A stretch of DNA of 64,000 nt. Origin: Alphaproteobacteria bacterium. Its GTDB lineage: Bacteria > Pseudomonadota > Alphaproteobacteria > Rhodospirillales > Rhodospirillaceae. The position numbers and the translations under genes are program-made. Shown here in pieces: positions 55,551 through 63,706 of this stretch. Below the pieces are notes generated by a model. It saw only the letters and a list, made by a program, of their open reading frames with translations, made no database searches and was not told the origin of the DNA. The stretch is taken from positions 1-64,000 of the forward strand of contig JAURPI010000047.1 of the NCBI GenBank assembly GCA_030835385.1, written 5' to 3'. Each line of letters begins with the position of its first letter. The stretch's first letter is position 1.

Positions 55551-55945
<395 letters not shown>

Positions 55946-55999: not shown

Positions 56000-56030
56000 T
56001 TGACAAAAAAGAACATATAAAGAACATATA
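56000..56030 (+). promoter_or_regulatory. dcw promoter with a LexA-type box
   Basis: A consensus -35 TTGACA at 56000-56005 precedes two copies of an 11-bp direct repeat AAGAACATATA (56009-56019, 56020-56030). Together they contain GAACATATAAAGAAC (56011-56025), an exact GAAC-N7-GAAC, the recognition pattern of alphaproteobacterial LexA (GTTC-N7-GTTC on the other strand). A -10 element would fall at about 56023-56029 (ACATAT), inside the box, so bound LexA would block RNA polymerase. A further TATAAT at 56064-56069 could be a second -10. The nearest gene downstream is mraZ, 132 bases away. Confidence 0.6.
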
Positions 56031-56048: not shown

Positions 56049-56130
56049 TACCATTGACGCCCATATAATCCCATGGCATACCAAGAAGGTTCGGCTTCCT
56101 GGCGCAAGACGTGCGTCCAGAGTCCGGCGA

Positions 56131-56161: not shown

Positions 56162-56623
56162 ATGAAGTCGTTCATCGGGACCTTCATTAATAAGATAGAT
56201 GCGAAGGGGCGTATTTCTGTCCCTGCGCCTTTTCGTGCCGTTTTGCAGGCCAAATCCCTGAGCGGCGTGACCTGCTATCCGGCCCTAACTGGACCCTGTA
56301 TTGAAGGCTGTGGTCTCGACCGGATCGAGGCCATGGTTGAAACCCTTCCCGATGAGCCGATCCCTGGCGTCGAAGAAGACGCAATAGCCCACCTAATATT
56401 TGCTTCGGCCCGTGACCTGCCCTTTGACGGCGGCGGCCGCATCGTCCTCCCAGCCGACTTTCTGAAAAAAGCCGGTCTAACCGACCAAGGCGCTTTTGTC
56501 GGCAAAGGCCGCACTTTTCAGATCTGGAATCCTTCAGCGCTCGAAACTGCCCAGGCAGAAATGTTCGAGCGCGCAATGGCAGAGCGAGAATCCTTGCTTC
56601 GGGCTAGGAAGGAGGCAGATTGA
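56162..56623 (+). CDS. mraZ: Transcriptional regulator MraZ
   Basis: First gene of the division and cell-wall cluster, 153 residues, with two AbrB-like SpoVT domains. The first is FIGTFINKIDAKGRISVPAPFRAVL; the second is around DLPFDGGGRIVLPADFLKKAGLTDQGAFVGKGRTFQIW. It represses its own cluster. The start ATG 56162 (MKSFIGTFINKIDAKGR) is used; the longer frame from 56111 lacks a ribosome binding site. The next gene starts at 56623, overlapping the mraZ stop by 1 base. Confidence 0.94.
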   Translation: MKSFIGTFINKIDAKGRISVPAPFRAVLQAKSLSGVTCYPALTGPCIEGCGLDRIEAMVETLPDEPIPGVEEDAIAHLIFASARDLPFDGGGRIVLPADFLKKAGLTDQGAFVGKGRTFQIWNPSALETAQAEMFERAMAERESLLRARKEAD

Positions 56624-57624
56624 TGTCACCCGTGGCGCCCTCCCCCTCCGCCCCGATTACAGACCCAGATCATATTCCAGTCCTCCTCTCCGAAGTCATT
56701 GAAGGGTTAAACCCTAAAGACGGGGGACTCTATGTTGACGGAACCTTTGGTGCTGGTGGCTATACGGTAGCCCTCTTGCAGGCGGCAGACTGCATTGTTT
56801 GGGCAATTGATCGCGATCCTGAAGCTTTAGAGCGAGGAAAAGCCCTCGCAGACTCGTATCCCGGCAGACTTCATTTCCTTCATGGTCGTTTCGGCGACCT
56901 TGCAAGCCTTCTTATTGAGAACGACGTGCGCGCTGTTGATGGCATCGCTCTCGACCTTGGCATCAGTTCTATGCAGGTCGATGACCGTAGCCGTGGCTTT
57001 TCTTTTCTGCGCGATGGTCCTTTGGATATGCGCATGGAGAAGTCAGGCATGAGTGCGGCGGATGCCGTCAACACCCTGCCTGAATCCGAATTGGCTGACA
57101 TTATTTATAAGTATGGCGAGGAACGTTTCTCTCGCCGGGTCGCGCACGCCATCGTTATGGCACGTAAATCACGTCCATTTTCTCGCACCATTCATTTGGC
57201 CGATACAATCCGTGCGGAAGTTAAACGGTCTCAGAATGGTATCGATCCAGCGACGCGGACATTCCAGGCGTTACGCATCTATGTAAATGATGAATTGGGT
57301 GAGCTTGAGCGGGGCTTAAGCGGTGCCGAACAATTACTTTCCGAACACGGCCGAATGGCTGTGGTGAGCTTTCATTCCCTCGAAGACCGGATCGTTAAAT
57401 CTTTCATCCGCGATCGCAGTGGCCGTGCGCCCAACCCATCGCGTCATGTTCCCGCACCGACAGCCGGGAAACCAACTGCAACATTCAGTCAGGTCAACGG
57501 CCGAGCTATTACGCCTTCAAAAAGAGAAGTCAGGGATAATCCACGAGCCCGCTCTGCCCGCCTGCGAATTGCTGAGCGCACTGCTCTTCCACCGCTCACC
57601 ACAGTTCAGGGAGGGGCGGCATGA
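56623..57624 (+). CDS. rsmH: 16S rRNA m4C1402 methyltransferase RsmH (MraW)
   Basis: SAM-dependent methyltransferase of 16S rRNA, 333 residues. HIPVLLSEVIEGLNPKDGGLYVDGTFGAGGYTVALLQA is the SAM-binding start, and DLGISSMQVDDRSRGFSFLRDGPLDMRMEKS is the family signature. Start at ATG 56623 with AAGGAGG upstream, overlapping the mraZ TGA. Ends with an ATGA overlap with ftsL. Order mraZ-rsmH-ftsL-ftsI is conserved. Confidence 0.96.
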   Translation: MSPVAPSPSAPITDPDHIPVLLSEVIEGLNPKDGGLYVDGTFGAGGYTVALLQAADCIVWAIDRDPEALERGKALADSYPGRLHFLHGRFGDLASLLIENDVRAVDGIALDLGISSMQVDDRSRGFSFLRDGPLDMRMEKSGMSAADAVNTLPESELADIIYKYGEERFSRRVAHAIVMARKSRPFSRTIHLADTIRAEVKRSQNGIDPATRTFQALRIYVNDELGELERGLSGAEQLLSEHGRMAVVSFHSLEDRIVKSFIRDRSGRAPNPSRHVPAPTAGKPTATFSQVNGRAITPSKREVRDNPRARSARLRIAERTALPPLTTVQGGAA

Positions 57625-57935
57625 GGTTGATGGACGTTATGTGGCTCGGACTGGTCCTGGTCGTTGCTGTTGCCCTGTTTGTGCTGAAGTACGAAGTGCA
57701 AAACCTCGAGGACGCGCTTGCCAGCCGCAATACTAACGTTGATGCCCATGCCCGCGCCATACAAGTGTTGGAAGCTGAGTGGACATTCTTAAACGACCCT
57801 GCCCGCCTACGAAGCCTTGGTCTTGAACACCTTGAACTGGCTCCTGTTGAGCCGGCACGAATTATCCCCTTTGATGCTATTCCGTTTCAAACCCTCGACG
57901 CCGACCCAGCTCTTCAGCCGGGAGGTGATCAATGA
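57621..57935 (+). CDS. ftsL: Cell division protein FtsL
   Basis: A 104-residue bitopic protein of the divisome. The N-terminal membrane span is MRLMDVMWLGLVLVVAVALFVLKYEVQNLEDAL, then a short coiled coil and a periplasmic tail. Overlaps rsmH and ftsI by 4 bases each (ATGA), so translation of the three is coupled. The sequence is poorly conserved in the family, so position in the cluster is the main support. Confidence 0.85.
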   Translation: MRLMDVMWLGLVLVVAVALFVLKYEVQNLEDALASRNTNVDAHARAIQVLEAEWTFLNDPARLRSLGLEHLELAPVEPARIIPFDAIPFQTLDADPALQPGGDQ

Positions 57936-59734
57936 AGGTTTGGTCTAAAGGGAAACGTAATATTGATTTCGTTTACCCCGGCGAAGACATTCAGTCAGCG
58001 CCTAAGGCTCGCGTTACACTGGTTGGTGAAACACAGCGGGCTGTCGAGATCGGCAGAGCTCGTTTAATGGTGACCGCTGGTCTGTTCACTTTCGCTTTTC
58101 TCTCTATCTCAGTGCGACTGGTGGACCTGATGGTCCTGAACGGTGCGCTTGATACAGGCCCAACCTATAACGCTGCGAACAATCAGCCAGCGCCCACATT
58201 TCGTTCGGATATCGTTGATCGCGAAGGCCGCACAATCGCGACAACCCTTCCGACCGCAAACCTATACGCCGAAGCGACAGAGATCATCGACGCGACCGTC
58301 GCTGCTGAAGCTTTGATCAGCGTTCTGCCGGGCCTAGACCGGGCAGACCTCACTCGGCGTCTAGAGTCTAATCAACGCTTCGTATATCTGCGCCGCCACT
58401 TAACGCCAAGCGAACAGATCGCTGTGAATACATTGGGTATTCCAGGTTTGTACTTTGAAGATTCTGAGCGTCGAATTTACCCCTATGGCCCGCTCTATTC
58501 TCATGTCGTTGGCACAACGGATCCCGACAACCGAGGCATAGCTGGGCTTGAATTAACTTTCGACAAGACTTTGTCCCAACGCCCTGCTGCGCTCGAGCTG
58601 TCCTTGGACAGTGGTGTTCAAAACGCCGTACGCGAAACCTTACAAGCCGCAATGGACCGGTTTAAAGCCACTGGTGCCGCTGGCGTTGTAATGGATGCCC
58701 GTACTGGTGAAATCATATCGCTAGTGTCTCTTCCTGACTTCGATCCAAAAGATAACGGTCGCGCTGATACAGACCGGCAGTTTAACCGCGCAACCCTCGG
58801 GCTTTATGAAATGGGGTCAACGTTCAAACTGTTTACGGCTGCCATGGCGCTTGAGCTTGGCGTTATCGCAATGGATAGCGTCTATGACGCCCGCACGCCA
58901 CTGACTATCGCTCGCTATACAATCGACGATTATCACGCTGAGAAACGTTGGCTCACTGTTCCAGAAATTCTTATCCACTCGTCAAATATCGGTGCTGCCA
59001 AAATCGCCCTCGATGCAGGCACACCAGCTCAGCAAAACTTCTTACACCAGCTCGGGCTTCTTTCGCCGCTTGATCTAGAACTACCAGAAATCGCGAGCCC
59101 CATGTTCCCGGCGGTTTGGCGTGAAATTAACACCGTCACAATATCCTACGGCCACGGCATAGCGGTCACACCGGTTCACGTCGCATCGGCTATCAGCGCA
59201 ATGGTCAATGGCGGCATCCTTAATCGGCCAACGCTGCTCAGACGTGACATCGTTTATGACGAGGACCGCACCCGTGTTATTTCGGAGGCGACATCCAAAC
59301 AAGTGCGTAGCCTGATGCGCTTGGTCGTCACCGAAGGGTCGGGCAAACAAGCTGAGGTTCAGGGATATGTTGTCGGCGGCAAGACTGGGTCGGCCGAAAA
59401 ACTCGATAGCGCAGGAGAGTATAGCGAGACCCAAATACGAACATCCTTTGTCGCCGCTTTCCCGATGCATGCACCGCGGTATGTGGTGTTGGCCCTTCTC
59501 GATGAGCCAAAGGGCCTAAAAGAAACATTCAATTACACAACAGCAGGCTGGAATGCCGCGCCCACAGTCGGCCGCATTGTTGCCGAAATTGCGCCCATGC
59601 TTGGCGTGTATCCAACAACAGAACAACCGATGGCGCCCGAATTGGGAACCCTCATAGAAGCCAGCGCGCGTATTTCCGAAATGGCCCTTGCCCCAGCCGG
59701 TACCGGCTTTGGCGGTGACCGTGCGGCTGAGTGA
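57932..59734 (+). CDS. ftsI: Division-specific transpeptidase FtsI (PBP3)
   Basis: Penicillin-binding protein of septal peptidoglycan cross-linking, 600 residues. One membrane anchor is near residues 47-68. Transpeptidase motifs: SxxK in MGSTFKLFTAAMALE, SxN in ILIHSSNIGAAKIA, KTG in VVGGKTGSAEKLDS. It overlaps murE by about 20 bases at its 3' end. Nothing unusual was noted. Confidence 0.96.
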   Translation: MKVWSKGKRNIDFVYPGEDIQSAPKARVTLVGETQRAVEIGRARLMVTAGLFTFAFLSISVRLVDLMVLNGALDTGPTYNAANNQPAPTFRSDIVDREGRTIATTLPTANLYAEATEIIDATVAAEALISVLPGLDRADLTRRLESNQRFVYLRRHLTPSEQIAVNTLGIPGLYFEDSERRIYPYGPLYSHVVGTTDPDNRGIAGLELTFDKTLSQRPAALELSLDSGVQNAVRETLQAAMDRFKATGAAGVVMDARTGEIISLVSLPDFDPKDNGRADTDRQFNRATLGLYEMGSTFKLFTAAMALELGVIAMDSVYDARTPLTIARYTIDDYHAEKRWLTVPEILIHSSNIGAAKIALDAGTPAQQNFLHQLGLLSPLDLELPEIASPMFPAVWREINTVTISYGHGIAVTPVHVASAISAMVNGGILNRPTLLRRDIVYDEDRTRVISEATSKQVRSLMRLVVTEGSGKQAEVQGYVVGGKTGSAEKLDSAGEYSETQIRTSFVAAFPMHAPRYVVLALLDEPKGLKETFNYTTAGWNAAPTVGRIVAEIAPMLGVYPTTEQPMAPELGTLIEASARISEMALAPAGTGFGGDRAAE

Positions 59735-61181
59735 GTTATTGGAGGATAGCGGCACAGACATGTTACGCCTGACTGATCTCGAAATTACCGGCATCACCGC
59801 TGACTCTCGGTCCGTGGAACCTGGCTTCTTGTTTGCTGCGTTACCGGGCACCAAAGTTGACGGCCGCGCGTTTATCGATGAAGCGGTGAAACGTGGAGCA
59901 TCCGCGGTAATAGCGCCAGACGGAACGGATCTGGACAGAGACGACGTCCAATTGATCACGGATTCCAATCCGCGCCGCTTGTTTGCTCAACTAGCGGCAA
60001 AATACTTCGTGGCACAGCCAGAGATTGCCGTTGCCGTTACGGGTACCAATGGCAAAACCTCTGTTGCACAGTTTGTTCGTCAGATTTGGCAACATGCGGG
60101 TCATCATGCGGCGGCTCTTGGGACTTTAGGTGTTGTATCTGACGATCTTTCTACAACAGGCAGTTTGACAACGCCGGACCCCGTCACCTTGCATAAACTG
60201 TTGGCGGATCTCGCCGAGCGTGGCGTTGATCACCTAGCCCTTGAAGCCTCAAGTCATGGTCTGGATCAATTCCGGCTAGACGGTGTGAAGATCAGCGCCG
60301 CCGCGTTCACTAACTTGAGCCGTGATCACCTTGATTACCACGGCTCTATGGACGCGTACCTGGACGCTAAAGTCCGGCTGTTCTCTGACGTCCTTATCCC
60401 CGGAGGTGTCGCTGTCATAAATGCAGACACCCCTGAATGCGCGAAGATTAAAGCTACCTGCGAGGCCCGCGGTCACTCCGCCATTACTTATGGTTATGCT
60501 GGCGATGCAATTTGTTTGGTCAGCGCAACAGCGACCGCACATGGACAAGACCTTAATCTATTGCTTCACGGTAAGATCGAAAACGTGGTCCTACCTCTGG
60601 CTGGCTCCTTTCAAGCAATGAATGCGCTATGCGCCGCTGGCCTCGCCCTCGCCACTGGAGTCACAACGGACAAAGTCATTTCTGCCATGTCCCAACTGGT
60701 CGGTGTTCCTGGGCGCCTAGAGCACGTCGGTAGCACCAAAAGCGGTGCCTCCGTATTTGTGGACTACGCGCACACACCAACGGCCCTGACCACAGCGCTG
60801 AATGCCCTTCGCCCTCACACACAAAACAAACTGAACGTTGTATTCGGCGCTGGTGGCGACCGCGACACTGGGAAACGGCCCCTTATGGGACACGCTGCAC
60901 AAGAAGCTGCAGATATCGCTTATGTGACTGACGACAATCCTCGCTCTGAAGATCCAACGCTAATTCGCGCTGCAATTCTTGCTGAGTGCCAAGAGGCAAC
61001 TGAAATTGGAGATCGCGCAGATGCGATTGAGTCCGCGATTTTGGCGCTGGAACCCGGTGACACCTTACTGATCGCCGGCAAGGGTCATGAAACAGGTCAA
61101 ATCGTTGGCGATACGGTCCTTCCCTTTGACGACCGTGAAGTCGCTCGCGCAGTCATTAAAAAACAGGGTGGCGCGTCATGA
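59715..61181 (+). CDS. murE: UDP-MurNAc-L-Ala-D-Glu:meso-DAP ligase MurE
   Basis: Adds the third amino acid to the peptidoglycan stem. About 488 residues. ATP-binding motif AVTGTNGKTSVAQFVRQIW, carbamylated Lys region and the meso-diaminopimelate-specifying DNPR motif (VTDDNPRSEDP), so the wall is of the meso-DAP type. GTG 59715 is the most likely start, since no ATG is available in frame; TTG 59688 and GTG 59721 are alternatives. Its first bases overlap ftsI and its last the murF start (ATGA). Confidence 0.94.
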   Translation: MTVRLSELLEDSGTDMLRLTDLEITGITADSRSVEPGFLFAALPGTKVDGRAFIDEAVKRGASAVIAPDGTDLDRDDVQLITDSNPRRLFAQLAAKYFVAQPEIAVAVTGTNGKTSVAQFVRQIWQHAGHHAAALGTLGVVSDDLSTTGSLTTPDPVTLHKLLADLAERGVDHLALEASSHGLDQFRLDGVKISAAAFTNLSRDHLDYHGSMDAYLDAKVRLFSDVLIPGGVAVINADTPECAKIKATCEARGHSAITYGYAGDAICLVSATATAHGQDLNLLLHGKIENVVLPLAGSFQAMNALCAAGLALATGVTTDKVISAMSQLVGVPGRLEHVGSTKSGASVFVDYAHTPTALTTALNALRPHTQNKLNVVFGAGGDRDTGKRPLMGHAAQEAADIAYVTDDNPRSEDPTLIRAAILAECQEATEIGDRADAIESAILALEPGDTLLIAGKGHETGQIVGDTVLPFDDREVARAVIKKQGGAS

Positions 61182-62602
61182 CGCCTTTTTGGACCAACGC
61201 CGAAGTTGCAACCGCGACAGATGGACGCGTCTCGGGTGAATGGGATGCCGATGGTGTCAGCATAGACAGCCGCGCTGTATCAGTTGGCGACCTTTTTGTT
61301 GCGGTGGAGGGCCCTAAATTCGACGGCCATGATTTTGTTATCGAAGCGCTAGAGCGTGGTGCCTCTTCGGCTATTGTCTCCCGGATACCAACAGACGGCA
61401 AACAAACCGTTAACGAGGATCGCCTCGTTGTTGTGGATGACACAACAGTTGCTCTGCAAGCGCTTGCTCGAGCGGCACGCTCACGGATCAACGGACGCGT
61501 TGCTGCTGTAACGGGAAGCGTTGGCAAGACGACAACAAAAGAAGCTTTGACGCTTGCATTGTCTCGCCAGGGGTCAACCCATGCAACTACAGGCAACCTC
61601 AACAATCATTGGGGCGTCCCACTTAGCCTATCTCGCATGCCCTCAGAGACAAACTATGCCGTTCTCGAACTTGGCATGAATCACGCGGGTGAAATCGAGC
61701 CACTCTCCAAAATGGTGCGGCCTCACGTCGCTGTGGTGACGACTGTCGAAGCTGTACATTTAGAGTTCTTTTCTTCCGTCGCAGATATCGCCGGCGCGAA
61801 GGCAGAAATATTCTCCGGGCTGGAATCTGGTGGCGTCGCCATCATTCCCGCCGACAACTCACACTATGATCGCCTGGCCAGAGCCGCGTCTGCTGCTAGT
61901 GCTGCACAGATCGTTTCTTTTGGAACAGATAATAGCGCTGCATATCGGCTCATCGCATGGTCCGTGAGCGAAGTTGGAACTCGTATTGCCGCCGACGTAA
62001 ACGGCAAACGCCTTGTGTACGACATTGGCATGATGGGCAAGCATATGGCCCTCAATAGTCTGGCCGTCTTAGCCACCGTCGACGCATTAGGTGGCGATAT
62101 CGAACAAGCGGCAGGCGACCTCAACGACATGACGCCCCCAGCAGGTCGGGGGGCTCGATCTGTTGTCGCCCTGTCTGCAGGGTCATTCGATCTGATTGAC
62201 GAAAGTTACAATGCAAGTCCGGCTTCCATTGCCGCATTAGCAGAAGCGCTAAATGCCACCCGCAAACGTGGCCGGGTCATTTTAGCGCTTGGTGATATGC
62301 TCGAGCTCGGCGCTAAGTCTGATGCGTTGCATGCGGACCTAGCTACTCCCATTGCAACCGATGGCATTGATTGCGTCTTTACGGCAGGCCCGGCCATGCG
62401 CCACCTCCATAACGCACTGCCATCACAGCAAGCGACGGCGCATGCAGCTGATGCTGAAGAGCTGGCGCCCCTAATCACAGAATTTGTTGAACCCGGCGAC
62501 GTTATTGCCGTGAAGGGTTCGTTCGGTAGCCGCATGTCTGTTGTCGTAGACGCGCTCAAAGAGTTGAGCCGCAACGCGCAATCAGCAGTCAACGGCGACT
62601 GA
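61178..62602 (+). CDS. murF: UDP-MurNAc-tripeptide:D-Ala-D-Ala ligase MurF
   Basis: Adds the D-Ala-D-Ala dipeptide. 474 residues. GVSIDSRAVSVGDLFVAVEGPKFDGHDFV is the N-terminal signature, AVTGSVGKTTTKEALTLAL the ATP loop, and YNASPASIAALAEALN the family motif. A 4-base overlap with murE couples their translation. mraY follows 18 bases later. Confidence 0.96.
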   Translation: MTPFWTNAEVATATDGRVSGEWDADGVSIDSRAVSVGDLFVAVEGPKFDGHDFVIEALERGASSAIVSRIPTDGKQTVNEDRLVVVDDTTVALQALARAARSRINGRVAAVTGSVGKTTTKEALTLALSRQGSTHATTGNLNNHWGVPLSLSRMPSETNYAVLELGMNHAGEIEPLSKMVRPHVAVVTTVEAVHLEFFSSVADIAGAKAEIFSGLESGGVAIIPADNSHYDRLARAASAASAAQIVSFGTDNSAAYRLIAWSVSEVGTRIAADVNGKRLVYDIGMMGKHMALNSLAVLATVDALGGDIEQAAGDLNDMTPPAGRGARSVVALSAGSFDLIDESYNASPASIAALAEALNATRKRGRVILALGDMLELGAKSDALHADLATPIATDGIDCVFTAGPAMRHLHNALPSQQATAHAADAEELAPLITEFVEPGDVIAVKGSFGSRMSVVVDALKELSRNAQSAVNGD

Positions 62603-62620: not shown

Positions 62621-63706
62621 ATGCTCTACTGGCTCTCTGAATTTTCCGGCAACTTCGCCGCCCTTAACTTGTTCCGCTACCTCACGTTCCGGACCGGTGG
62701 CGCTGTGATTACAGCGATGATAATCGCGTTTGTGTGCGGTCCAGCGATTATTCGCTGGCTCAAGAGTCGCCAGACCAATGGACAGCCGATCCGCGAGGAT
62801 GGGCCGCAAAGCCATGTCCTAACAAAACAAGGTACACCGACTATGGGCGGCATGATGATGCTGCTAGCCATCTCTGTATCGACACTACTATGGGCCGATC
62901 TCTCCAACGCTTATGTATGGGCCGTGCTGGCCGTAACTATGGGCTTTGGCGCCATCGGCTTTGCGGACGACTACCTTAAGGTCACCAGACGTCATTCTGG
63001 CGGATTGCCCGGCCGGGTTAAGTTGGTTGCGGAAGCGGTCATCGCTATCGCTGTAGCACTTTGGATCGTCAGCGTAACGACAGACATTACGCCTACGGGT
63101 CTCGCCTTCCCGTTCTTTAAAGACCTCTTGATTGACCTCGGTTGGTTCTACATTCCATTCGCTGCCTTCATTATTGTCGGTGCTTCCAATTCGGTAAATC
63201 TCACCGACGGGCTGGATGGCCTTGCCATTGTACCGGTGATGATCTGCGCCGGCGTGTTTCTAATGATCTCATACCTTATCGGTAACGCGTTCTTTGCTGA
63301 GTATCTTCAAGTCCACTTCGTACGTGGAACAGGCGAGCTCACAGTTTTCTGCGGCACCATCATCGGCGCTGGCCTTGGCTTCCTCTGGTTTAACGCGCCG
63401 CCAGCCATGGTCTTTATGGGCGATACGGGTTCACTGGCTATGGGTGGCGCACTCGGTGCGGTCTCAGTAGTCACAAAACACGAAATCGTACTCGGCATAA
63501 CGGGCGGCCTGTTCGTCCTTGAAACTGTGTCGGTCATTGTCCAAGTCGTCTCATTTAAACTGACAGGCCGCCGCGTGTTCCGCATGGCGCCGCTACATCA
63601 TCACTTCGAGCAAAAAGGCTGGGCGGAGCCGACGATCGTCATCCGCTTCTGGATCATCGCTTGCATTCTGGCCATCGCCGGCCTGAGCACGTTGAAGCTG
63701 AGGTGA
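62621..63706 (+). CDS. mraY: Phospho-N-acetylmuramoyl-pentapeptide transferase MraY
   Basis: Integral membrane enzyme that makes lipid I from UDP-MurNAc-pentapeptide and undecaprenyl phosphate. 361 residues with about ten membrane segments. Motifs: [25 protein letters not shown] (catalytic Asp pair), [13 protein letters not shown] and [20 protein letters not shown]. The upstream GAGGGAGG is a strong ribosome binding site. Murein precursors from murE-murF feed it. Confidence 0.97.

What the first reader, a model, noticed from the sequence alone, without database searches (positions are those of the whole stretch)
56000..56030. LexA-type box in the promoter of the division and cell-wall cluster
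GAACATATAAAGAAC exactly matches the alphaproteobacterial LexA pattern GAAC-N7-GAAC and lies just behind a perfect TTGACA -35 and over the expected -10, ahead of mraZ. If LexA binds there, DNA damage would alter expression of mraZ-rsmH-ftsL-ftsI-murE and later genes, which would couple the SOS response to septum and wall synthesis in an unusual way (division inhibition in SOS usually works through a dedicated inhibitor). The 11-bp tandem repeat context shows the match is not isolated sequence noise.
Basis: partly seen in the sequence, partly recalled or inferred. Interest (0 to 1): 0.75.

Follow-up and report, generated by a model that had tools for sequence, protein, structure and literature searches.

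The report
Conserved LexA operator upstream of mraZ
A probable binding site for the DNA-damage repressor LexA lies ahead of the gene cluster for cell division and wall building in this alphaproteobacterium; about half of the relatives examined have it and none of those examined without a full LexA do, so DNA damage probably controls that cluster directly, as has been reported for E. coli.

Summary
GAACATATAAAGAAC lies at 56011-56025, starting 151 bp before mraZ. Alone it is not improbable (3 matches in the window, 2.61 expected); conservation makes it significant. In this genome exact GAAC-N7-GAAC boxes also precede lexA, recA, uvrA, imuA, an SRAP gene and a radical-SAM gene. Of 175 alphaproteobacterial mraZ upstream regions 90 carry the box (7 of 7 in the genus, window included); shuffles give 2.5, at most 7. 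Other spacings are near zero. Of 18 genomes without a LexA match above the model's cut-off none has it, against 55 of 107 with one; 0 of 29 non-alphaproteobacterial regions have it.

The promoter claim needs correction: TTGACA is present but lacks a good -10. The best-conserved promoter-like element lies 43 bp downstream, interleaved with a CCCAT array, probably the MraZ operator. I propose that LexA silences a distal, damage-inducible promoter; binding and induction are untested.

The link is not unprecedented: LexA repression of the E. coli dcw cluster (PMC3265435) and an EMSA for a gut mraZ site (PMC3998124) are in print. I found no alphaproteobacterial report in the papers searched.

The parts
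55551..55939 (+). RNase P RNA gene (rnpB), upstream neighbour; not part of the operator
   Evidence: Rfam RF00010, 328.7 bits
56000..56005 (+). TTGACA, -35-like hexamer of the proposed distal promoter P1
   Evidence: sequence; TTGACA in all 7 genus sequences, but TTGAC within 25 bp 5' of the box in only 9 of 76 forward-box genomes
56011..56025 (+). LexA operator GAACATATAAAGAAC (GAAC-N7-GAAC)
56050..56084 (+). CCAT/CCCAT direct repeats with 10-bp period: putative MraZ operator array
   Evidence: CCCA-N6-CCCA upstream of mraZ in 157 of 175 genomes; function by analogy with published MraZ boxes (PMC7761207, PMC8475190, passages)
56054..56082 (+). Proposed proximal promoter P2: TTGACG - 17 bp - CATACC, interleaved with the CCCAT array
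   Evidence: pattern TTGAC-N18-NATNCC in 97 of 175 genomes, 0.2 expected from 20 mononucleotide shuffles
56162..56623 (+). mraZ (MraZ, 153 aa)
   Evidence: PF02381 above cut-off; NCBIfam MraZ models match below their cut-offs
56623..57624 (+). rsmH
   Evidence: TIGR00006, 317 bits, above cut-off
57621..57935 (+). ftsL
   Evidence: NF049847 above cut-off
57932..59734 (+). ftsI (septal transpeptidase, class B PBP)
   Evidence: penicillin-binding protein models, none above its own cut-off; position in the cluster
59688..61181 (+). murE
   Evidence: NF001124, TIGR01085 above cut-off
61178..62602 (+). murF
   Evidence: TIGR01143 above cut-off
62621..63706 (+). mraY
   Evidence: TIGR00445 above cut-off

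Best explanation
GAACATATAAAGAAC at 56011-56025 is a genuine LexA operator (I put this part at about 0.87). In undamaged cells LexA most likely sits on a distal promoter P1 (TTGACA at 56000-56005) and keeps it silent, while a proximal promoter P2 (56054-56082), overlapped by a CCCAT repeat array that MraZ probably binds, supplies housekeeping transcription of the dcw genes. After DNA damage, RecA-stimulated LexA self-cleavage would open P1 and send extra transcripts into mraZ-rsmH-ftsL-ftsI-murE-murF-mraY. More MraZ, a repressor of the dcw cluster in E. coli and Mycoplasma genitalium, would then act back on P2 and could work as a brake on division. Shown here: the box, its conservation, its absence where no full LexA was found, its likeness to SOS boxes of the same genome, the conserved P2 element and CCCAT array. 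Inferred: LexA binding, repression, the existence of P1, MraZ binding, and the effect on division. The figure below is for the whole mechanism.
For: Exact box 40 bp before the lexA ORF and 87 bp before the recA ORF of the same genome, and at uvrA, SRAP, radical SAM and imuA-imuB. By spacer similarity to SOS boxes of relatives the mraZ site ranks 4th of 91 exact sites in the genome with one training set and 9th of 91 with another. Conserved before mraZ: genus 7 of 7 (window included), rest of family 18 of 25, rest of order 12 of 21, rest of class 53 of 122; 90 of 175 against shuffle mean 2.46, maximum 7 in 200; 59 of 123 families have at least one member with it. Spacing-specific: only N7 is enriched. 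A scan of direct 4-base repeats at periods 6-15 ranks GAAC at period 11 (76 of 175) behind only CCCA, CCAT and TCCC at period 10. LexA dependence: 0 of 18 genomes without a LexA match above the cut-off, 55 of 107 with one, Fisher p 1.2e-5. 0 of 29 non-alphaproteobacterial mraZ regions. Precedents: E. coli dcw cluster repressed by LexA at three SOS boxes (PMC3265435, section read); mraZ site bound by B. subtilis LexA in EMSA (PMC3998124, passages); MraZ overexpression elongates E. coli to the point of death (PMC4446571, passages).
Against: No binding or expression data. P1 lacks a recognisable -10, and TTGAC next to the box is confined to 9 of 76 forward-box genomes. PMC5089854 (section 8) reports mraZ leaders of at most 70 nt typically in species outside Rhodobacteraceae, Caulobacter included, which fits P2 rather than P1. 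52 of 107 LexA-bearing genomes of the class set have no exact box; 23 of these 52 have a one-mismatch site, but shuffles give 14.8 on average and up to 21, so those near-sites prove little. The main text of a 2025 Caulobacter SOS study does not name mraZ; I could not see its gene tables, nor whether Caulobacter has the box. In Corynebacterium glutamicum, which has an SOS response to ciprofloxacin, mraZ mRNA fell (PMC5055667, passages), the opposite of simple derepression, though that is another phylum. Genomes without LexA include many small ones and are not phylogenetically independent.
Confidence: 0.6

Rival explanations
1. It is a LexA operator, but it does not work by covering a promoter of mraZ: LexA bound upstream acts on P2 from a distance (loop, or blocking of an activator), or controls a separate leader transcript or small RNA like UpsM of Rhodobacter sphaeroides.
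For: Box-to-P2 distance is narrowly distributed: mode 156 bp (11 of 61 genomes with both elements), 150-158 bp in 19 of the 37 families with both elements, with little conserved sequence in between (weak columns only 13-24 bp before P2), while P2-to-ATG varies more (interquartile 113-153 against 138.5-156 for 38 order- and class-level rows). In R. sphaeroides the only dcw promoter starts 268 nt upstream and makes the sRNA UpsM (PMC5089854, passages), close to the class median box position of -278.5.
Against: In the window's genus and three further genomes of the family the distance is 43 bp. The segment shows no unusual RNA folding (mean z -0.46, 3 of 36 below -2). The clustering is moderate: 16 of 38 rows within 4 bp of 155, against 11 of 38 in the best 9-bp window for P2-to-ATG. 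No known LexA loops DNA (recalled).
Confidence: 0.22
2. The repeat is the operator of another regulator that shares the GAAC-N7-GAAC pattern.
For: The N7 of the mraZ boxes (A[AT]A-rich) differs from that of the lexA-promoter boxes (mostly GAAC[TC]AAA[GC]TAGAAC), so the sets are not identical.
Against: Boxes at imuA, SRAP, radical SAM and the dusA intergenic region have the same A[AT]-rich spacer as the mraZ box, and 0 of 18 genomes without a LexA match above cut-off keep the box.
Confidence: 0.05
3. A chance or relic match without function.
For: The bare pattern is expected 2.6 times in the window, and genome-wide it is rarer than its reversed control (91 against 131).
Against: 90 of 175 against 2.46 in shuffles; 8 of 8 half-site bases invariant in 7 of 7 genus genomes while 34% of flanking columns are.
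Confidence: 0.04

Closest known systems
E. coli dcw cluster under LexA (stated in PMC3265435; its Figure 5 is adapted from EcoCyc)
   Same: LexA repression of the 5' region of the division and wall cluster, through three SOS boxes.
   Different: The alphaproteobacterial motif differs from the E. coli one (CTGT-N8-ACAG, recalled; 0 matches in the window; 1 of 29 non-alphaproteobacterial mraZ upstream regions). Where exactly the E. coli boxes lie I did not see, so shared ancestry of the control is open.
LexA site of an MraZ homolog in the human gut meta-regulon (PMC3998124)
   Same: LexA proposed to control mraZ; EMSA with B. subtilis LexA.
   Different: Discussed there for Gram-positive bacteria and tested with B. 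subtilis LexA, whose motif differs (recalled).
Alphaproteobacterial SOS regulon (LexA box GTTC-N7-GTTC, e.g. Caulobacter crescentus)
   Same: Same motif read on the other strand; same motif at lexA, recA, uvrA, imuA in this genome.
   Different: mraZ is not named in the main text of the Caulobacter study I could search (PMC12700426, passages).
dcw 5' leader / sRNA UpsM of Rhodobacter sphaeroides (PMC5089854)
   Same: A distal promoter about 270 nt upstream of mraZ reads into the dcw cluster.
   Different: No mention of LexA or SOS (0 occurrences); in R. sphaeroides no proximal promoter.
MraZ boxes (repeats upstream of mraZ in E. coli, Burkholderia, Mollicutes)
   Same: Several direct repeats upstream of mraZ; 10-bp period here and in Burkholderia (four 7-nt repeats with 3-nt spacers, PMC7761207, passages).
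   Different: Here CCCAT on the coding strand; in 19 non-alphaproteobacterial regions the commonest period-10 repeats were GTGG and TGGG on the coding strand (18 and 11 of 19), i.e. the reverse orientation.
SidA of Caulobacter (29-aa SOS-induced division inhibitor, PMC4211646, passages)
   Same: This genome has a LexA-boxed 32-aa hydrophobic microprotein.
   Different: No sequence comparison with SidA made; function unknown.

Membership tests
LexA operator of the alphaproteobacterial type | Exact GAAC-N7-GAAC (GTTC-N7-GTTC) | tested here: met
LexA operator of the alphaproteobacterial type | Same box at lexA and recA of the same genome | tested here: met
LexA operator of the alphaproteobacterial type | Conserved at the orthologous position beyond chance | tested here: met
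   90 of 175 against shuffle mean 2.46, max 7; N7 only
LexA operator of the alphaproteobacterial type | Absent where LexA is absent | tested here: met
   0 of 18 against 55 of 107; of the 18, nine have no TIGR00498 match and nine only a match below its cut-off; relatedness not corrected for
LexA operator of the alphaproteobacterial type | Overlaps a promoter so that binding can repress | tested here: inconclusive
   TTGACA adjacent, no -10; promoter-score mean 7.2 around boxes against 6.2 elsewhere, biased by the A-rich box
LexA operator of the alphaproteobacterial type | LexA binds it in vitro or in vivo | not testable with these tools
   needs EMSA or ChIP
SOS regulon member (mraZ) | Induced by DNA damage in a RecA/LexA-dependent way | not testable with these tools
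   no expression data for the organism
MraZ operator (CCCAT array) | Three or more direct repeats with 10-bp period upstream of mraZ | tested here: met
   three CCAT in 119 and three CCCA in 107 of 175 genomes; for the window (three CCAT)
MraZ operator (CCCAT array) | Bound by MraZ | not testable with these tools
   needs EMSA

The most novel reading that the evidence does not exclude
Alphaproteobacteria share an ancient circuit in which LexA and MraZ jointly govern the division and wall cluster: DNA damage opens a LexA-controlled promoter that raises MraZ, which re-sets dcw transcription as a brake, in parallel with a small membrane inhibitor. The near-fixed 156-bp distance from the LexA box to the MraZ-overlapped promoter in many families would mean that the two bound sites communicate over a set length of DNA, a mode not known to me for LexA.
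Probability: 0.25. Interest if true: 0.76.

Novelty: new member of a known kind. Interest (0 to 1): 0.53.

Why it matters
Division arrest in the SOS response is normally explained by dedicated inhibitor proteins. A LexA operator before mraZ in at least one member of 59 of the 123 families examined suggests that many Alphaproteobacteria also change transcription of the division and wall genes themselves, extending what is stated for E. coli to a class with a different LexA motif, and gives MraZ, which inhibits division when overproduced in E. coli (PMC4446571, passages), a testable stress role.

Tried and rejected
Chance: rejected by spacing, shuffles and conservation. The box belonging to rnpB: rejected as an explanation, since rnpB was found in the held flank of 15 of 20 loci scanned, and two of the five without it (L157 and Novispirillum L178) still have the box. 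A structured element in the box-to-P2 segment: no unusual folding, little shared sequence. Degenerate boxes explaining the LexA-bearing genomes without an exact one: 23 of 52 have a one-mismatch site, shuffles 14.8 (max 21 in 30 rounds), and 4 of 18 LexA-less genomes have one, so not usable. CtrA sites in the leader: TTAA-N7-TTAA in 13 of 175 against 4 (max 9) in 15 shuffles, weak. E. coli-type LexA boxes before mraZ outside Alphaproteobacteria: 1 of 29. A naive enrichment of the box in the genome: none (91 against 131 reversed).

Rows dropped: of 54 'relatives' genomes with mraZ two lacked a usable start (G016, G052); of 126 class genomes with mraZ G152 has no upstream sequence. Five class genomes with an unusual start motif were kept with the start set by the profile match, and G038 was kept with an approximate start. 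Of the lexA searches only the 59 loci returned were examined: 51 with a box within 300 bp, 4 with a start found and no box, 4 with no start found. The microprotein was matched in 18 of 41 genomes at E 0.1 (some weakly); the 12 with loci were inspected. In the own genome 51 of 91 boxes were placed relative to genes: 30 of those returned with loci or re-fetched, the rest chosen by me (A+T-rich spacers favoured) plus lexA's and the window's. Non-alphaproteobacterial control: 52 such genomes matched, the 29 with loci were used; a first pass found starts in 19 of 29 and was repeated for all 29. In named records 76 of 80 loci had at least 350 bp upstream, by my count in the script except two short ones of 340 and 361 bp judged by that limit.

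Literature: ten searches; bear on LexA, SOS or damage together with mraZ, mraW, dcw or UpsM. Of the 38 papers with LexA and mraZ (30 listed) I opened seven (passages, and one section). Only PMC3998124 and PMC3265435 tied LexA to mraZ or its cluster in what I saw; the 2008 Caulobacter regulon paper is not held.

Full report
Observation. GAACATATAAAGAAC lies at 56011-56025 on the + strand; it starts 151 bp before the mraZ ATG (56162), 71 bp behind the end of rnpB (55551-55939). TTGACA lies at 56000-56005. The cluster behind it is mraZ, rsmH, ftsL, ftsI, murE, murF, mraY. The bare pattern occurs 3 times in the window with 2.61 expected, and the other two copies are inside ORFs. In the genome there are 91 exact copies, fewer than the 131 of the reversed control. 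The finding therefore had to stand or fall on comparison.

Same genome. lexA (C40) has GAACTAAAGTAGAAC 40 bp before its ORF, and recA (C5, minus strand) has GAACAATAATGGAAC 87 bp before its ORF. Further exact boxes stand at the starts of uvrA, an SRAP gene, a PA0069-family radical-SAM gene, imuA followed by imuB, and two in the intergenic region of dusA (identities by Pfam and NCBIfam; imuA matches its model below the curated cut-off). I placed 51 of the 91 boxes relative to genes; most of the others among those 51 lie inside ORFs. Ranked by spacer similarity to boxes of relatives, the mraZ site is 4th of 91 when trained on dusA-region boxes and 9th of 91 when lexA-promoter boxes are added.

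Relatives. I collected up to 500 bp upstream of mraZ from 175 genomes of the class. The box is present in 7 of 7 genomes of the genus (window included), 18 of 25 others of the family, 12 of 21 others of the order, and 53 of 122 others of the class: 90 of 175, with shuffle mean 2.46 and maximum 7 in 200 rounds. Counting families, 59 of 123 have at least one member with it. Spacings N2-N6 and N8-N15 give 0-3 genomes per group and strand; N7 gives 76 forward and 16 reverse, so two genomes have both. The forward form is the one seen in the window; reverse forms include Parvibaculum and Rhodobiaceae MAGs. In named records the box is found in 47 of 76 loci with at least 350 bp upstream, including Novispirillum itersonii, Magnetospirillum sulfuroxidans, a Rhodospirillum MAG and Pelagibius, and is absent in Thalassospira mesophila and two Magnetospirillum fulvum records.

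Link to LexA. In the class sample with mraZ upstream sequence, 9 genomes have no LexA match and 9 only a match below the model's cut-off. None of these 18 has the box; 55 of 107 with a match above it do (Fisher p 1.2e-5, not corrected for relatedness; the own genome and two of its order are in the 107). Of the 52 LexA-bearing genomes without an exact box, 23 have a one-mismatch site, not clearly more than the 14.8 (max 21) of shuffles. Outside the class, 0 of 29 mraZ regions have the box. Promoters of lexA in relatives carry it in 51 of 59 loci examined, mostly as GAAC[TC]AAA[GC]TAGAAC.

Anatomy of the promoter region. A scan of direct 4-base repeats at periods 6-15 found two dominant signals: CCCA/CCAT at period 10 (157 and 155 of 175) and GAAC at period 11 (76 of 175). 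The first is probably the MraZ operator; published MraZ boxes are direct repeats near the mraZ promoter (PMC7761207 and PMC8475190, passages). Interleaved with it is a promoter-like element TTGAC-N18-NATNCC in 97 of 175 genomes, against 0.2 in shuffles. In the window it is 56054-56082, predicting a start roughly 70 nt before mraZ (my estimate), which agrees with the short mraZ leaders reported for species outside Rhodobacteraceae in PMC5089854 (section 8). The LexA box lies 43 bp upstream of this P2.

A spacing that I cannot explain. In 61 genomes with both elements the box-to-P2 distance has a mode of 156 bp (11 genomes) and a second mode of 43 bp (10 genomes, the genus and three other family members). 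Distances of 150-158 bp occur in 19 of the 37 families that have both elements, with little sequence conservation between them. The P2-to-ATG distance is looser, but not random: 16 of 38 order- and class-level rows lie within 4 bp of 155, against 11 of 38 in the best 9-bp window for P2-to-ATG. This could reflect long-range action, shared ancestry, or an undetected element.

Mechanism. Shown: site, conservation, LexA correlation, neighbouring elements. Inferred: LexA represses P1; damage opens it; extra transcription reaches mraZ-ftsI-murE; MraZ feeds back on P2. Whether the net effect is more or less division protein cannot be decided from sequence. MraZ represses the cluster in E. coli and Mycoplasma genitalium, while in M. 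gallisepticum its overexpression went with more FtsZ and filamentation (PMC8475190, passages); in E. coli overexpressed MraZ causes severe elongation to the point of death (PMC4446571, passages). So SOS-raised MraZ could be a brake. Against a general rule, mraZ mRNA fell after ciprofloxacin in Corynebacterium glutamicum (PMC5055667, passages).

Known or new. PMC3265435 (section read) states that regulation of the E. [quoted passage not shown] LexA control of an mraZ homolog was proposed from gut metagenomes and supported by EMSA with B. subtilis LexA (PMC3998124, passages). I found no report for Alphaproteobacteria in the open-licence library, of which I opened only some hits and which lacks most subscription papers. 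I therefore call it a new member of a known kind, with a class-specific motif and an unexplained spacing.

Noticed in passing
own genome C1:14968-15125 (L138 1469-1626); relatives L377-L388: A 32-aa hydrophobic microprotein (MDASRYLKDSLALLGLFGVIYLWSVVAYALQV), divergent from dusA in this genome, has two exact LexA boxes just upstream; both boxes are present in 12 of 12 loci inspected (own genome included), and the protein was matched in 18 of 41 genomes at E 0.1. A candidate for a SidA-like SOS division inhibitor.
   Followed up: partly
window 56050-56084: CCCAT direct repeats at 10-bp period upstream of mraZ (CCCA-N6-CCCA in 157 of 175 genomes); probably the MraZ operator, in the opposite orientation to GTGG/TGGG repeats of other classes.
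   Followed up: partly
upstream of mraZ, class-wide (e.g. L077, L066, L081): DnaA-box-like TTATCCACA (either strand) in 16 of 175 mraZ upstream regions against 0.9 in shuffles; in several it lies within some tens of bp of the LexA box (read by eye).
   Followed up: no
mraZ upstream regions with both elements: LexA box to P2 distance clusters at 156 bp in many families and at 43 bp in the window's genus, with little conserved sequence between.
   Followed up: partly
own genome C4:44062-44076 (L011 1501-1515): LexA-like box GAACATATGATGAAC overlapping the apparent start of a 158-aa protein without NCBIfam match; resembles MmcB-type DNA-repair proteins (recalled, untested).
   Followed up: no
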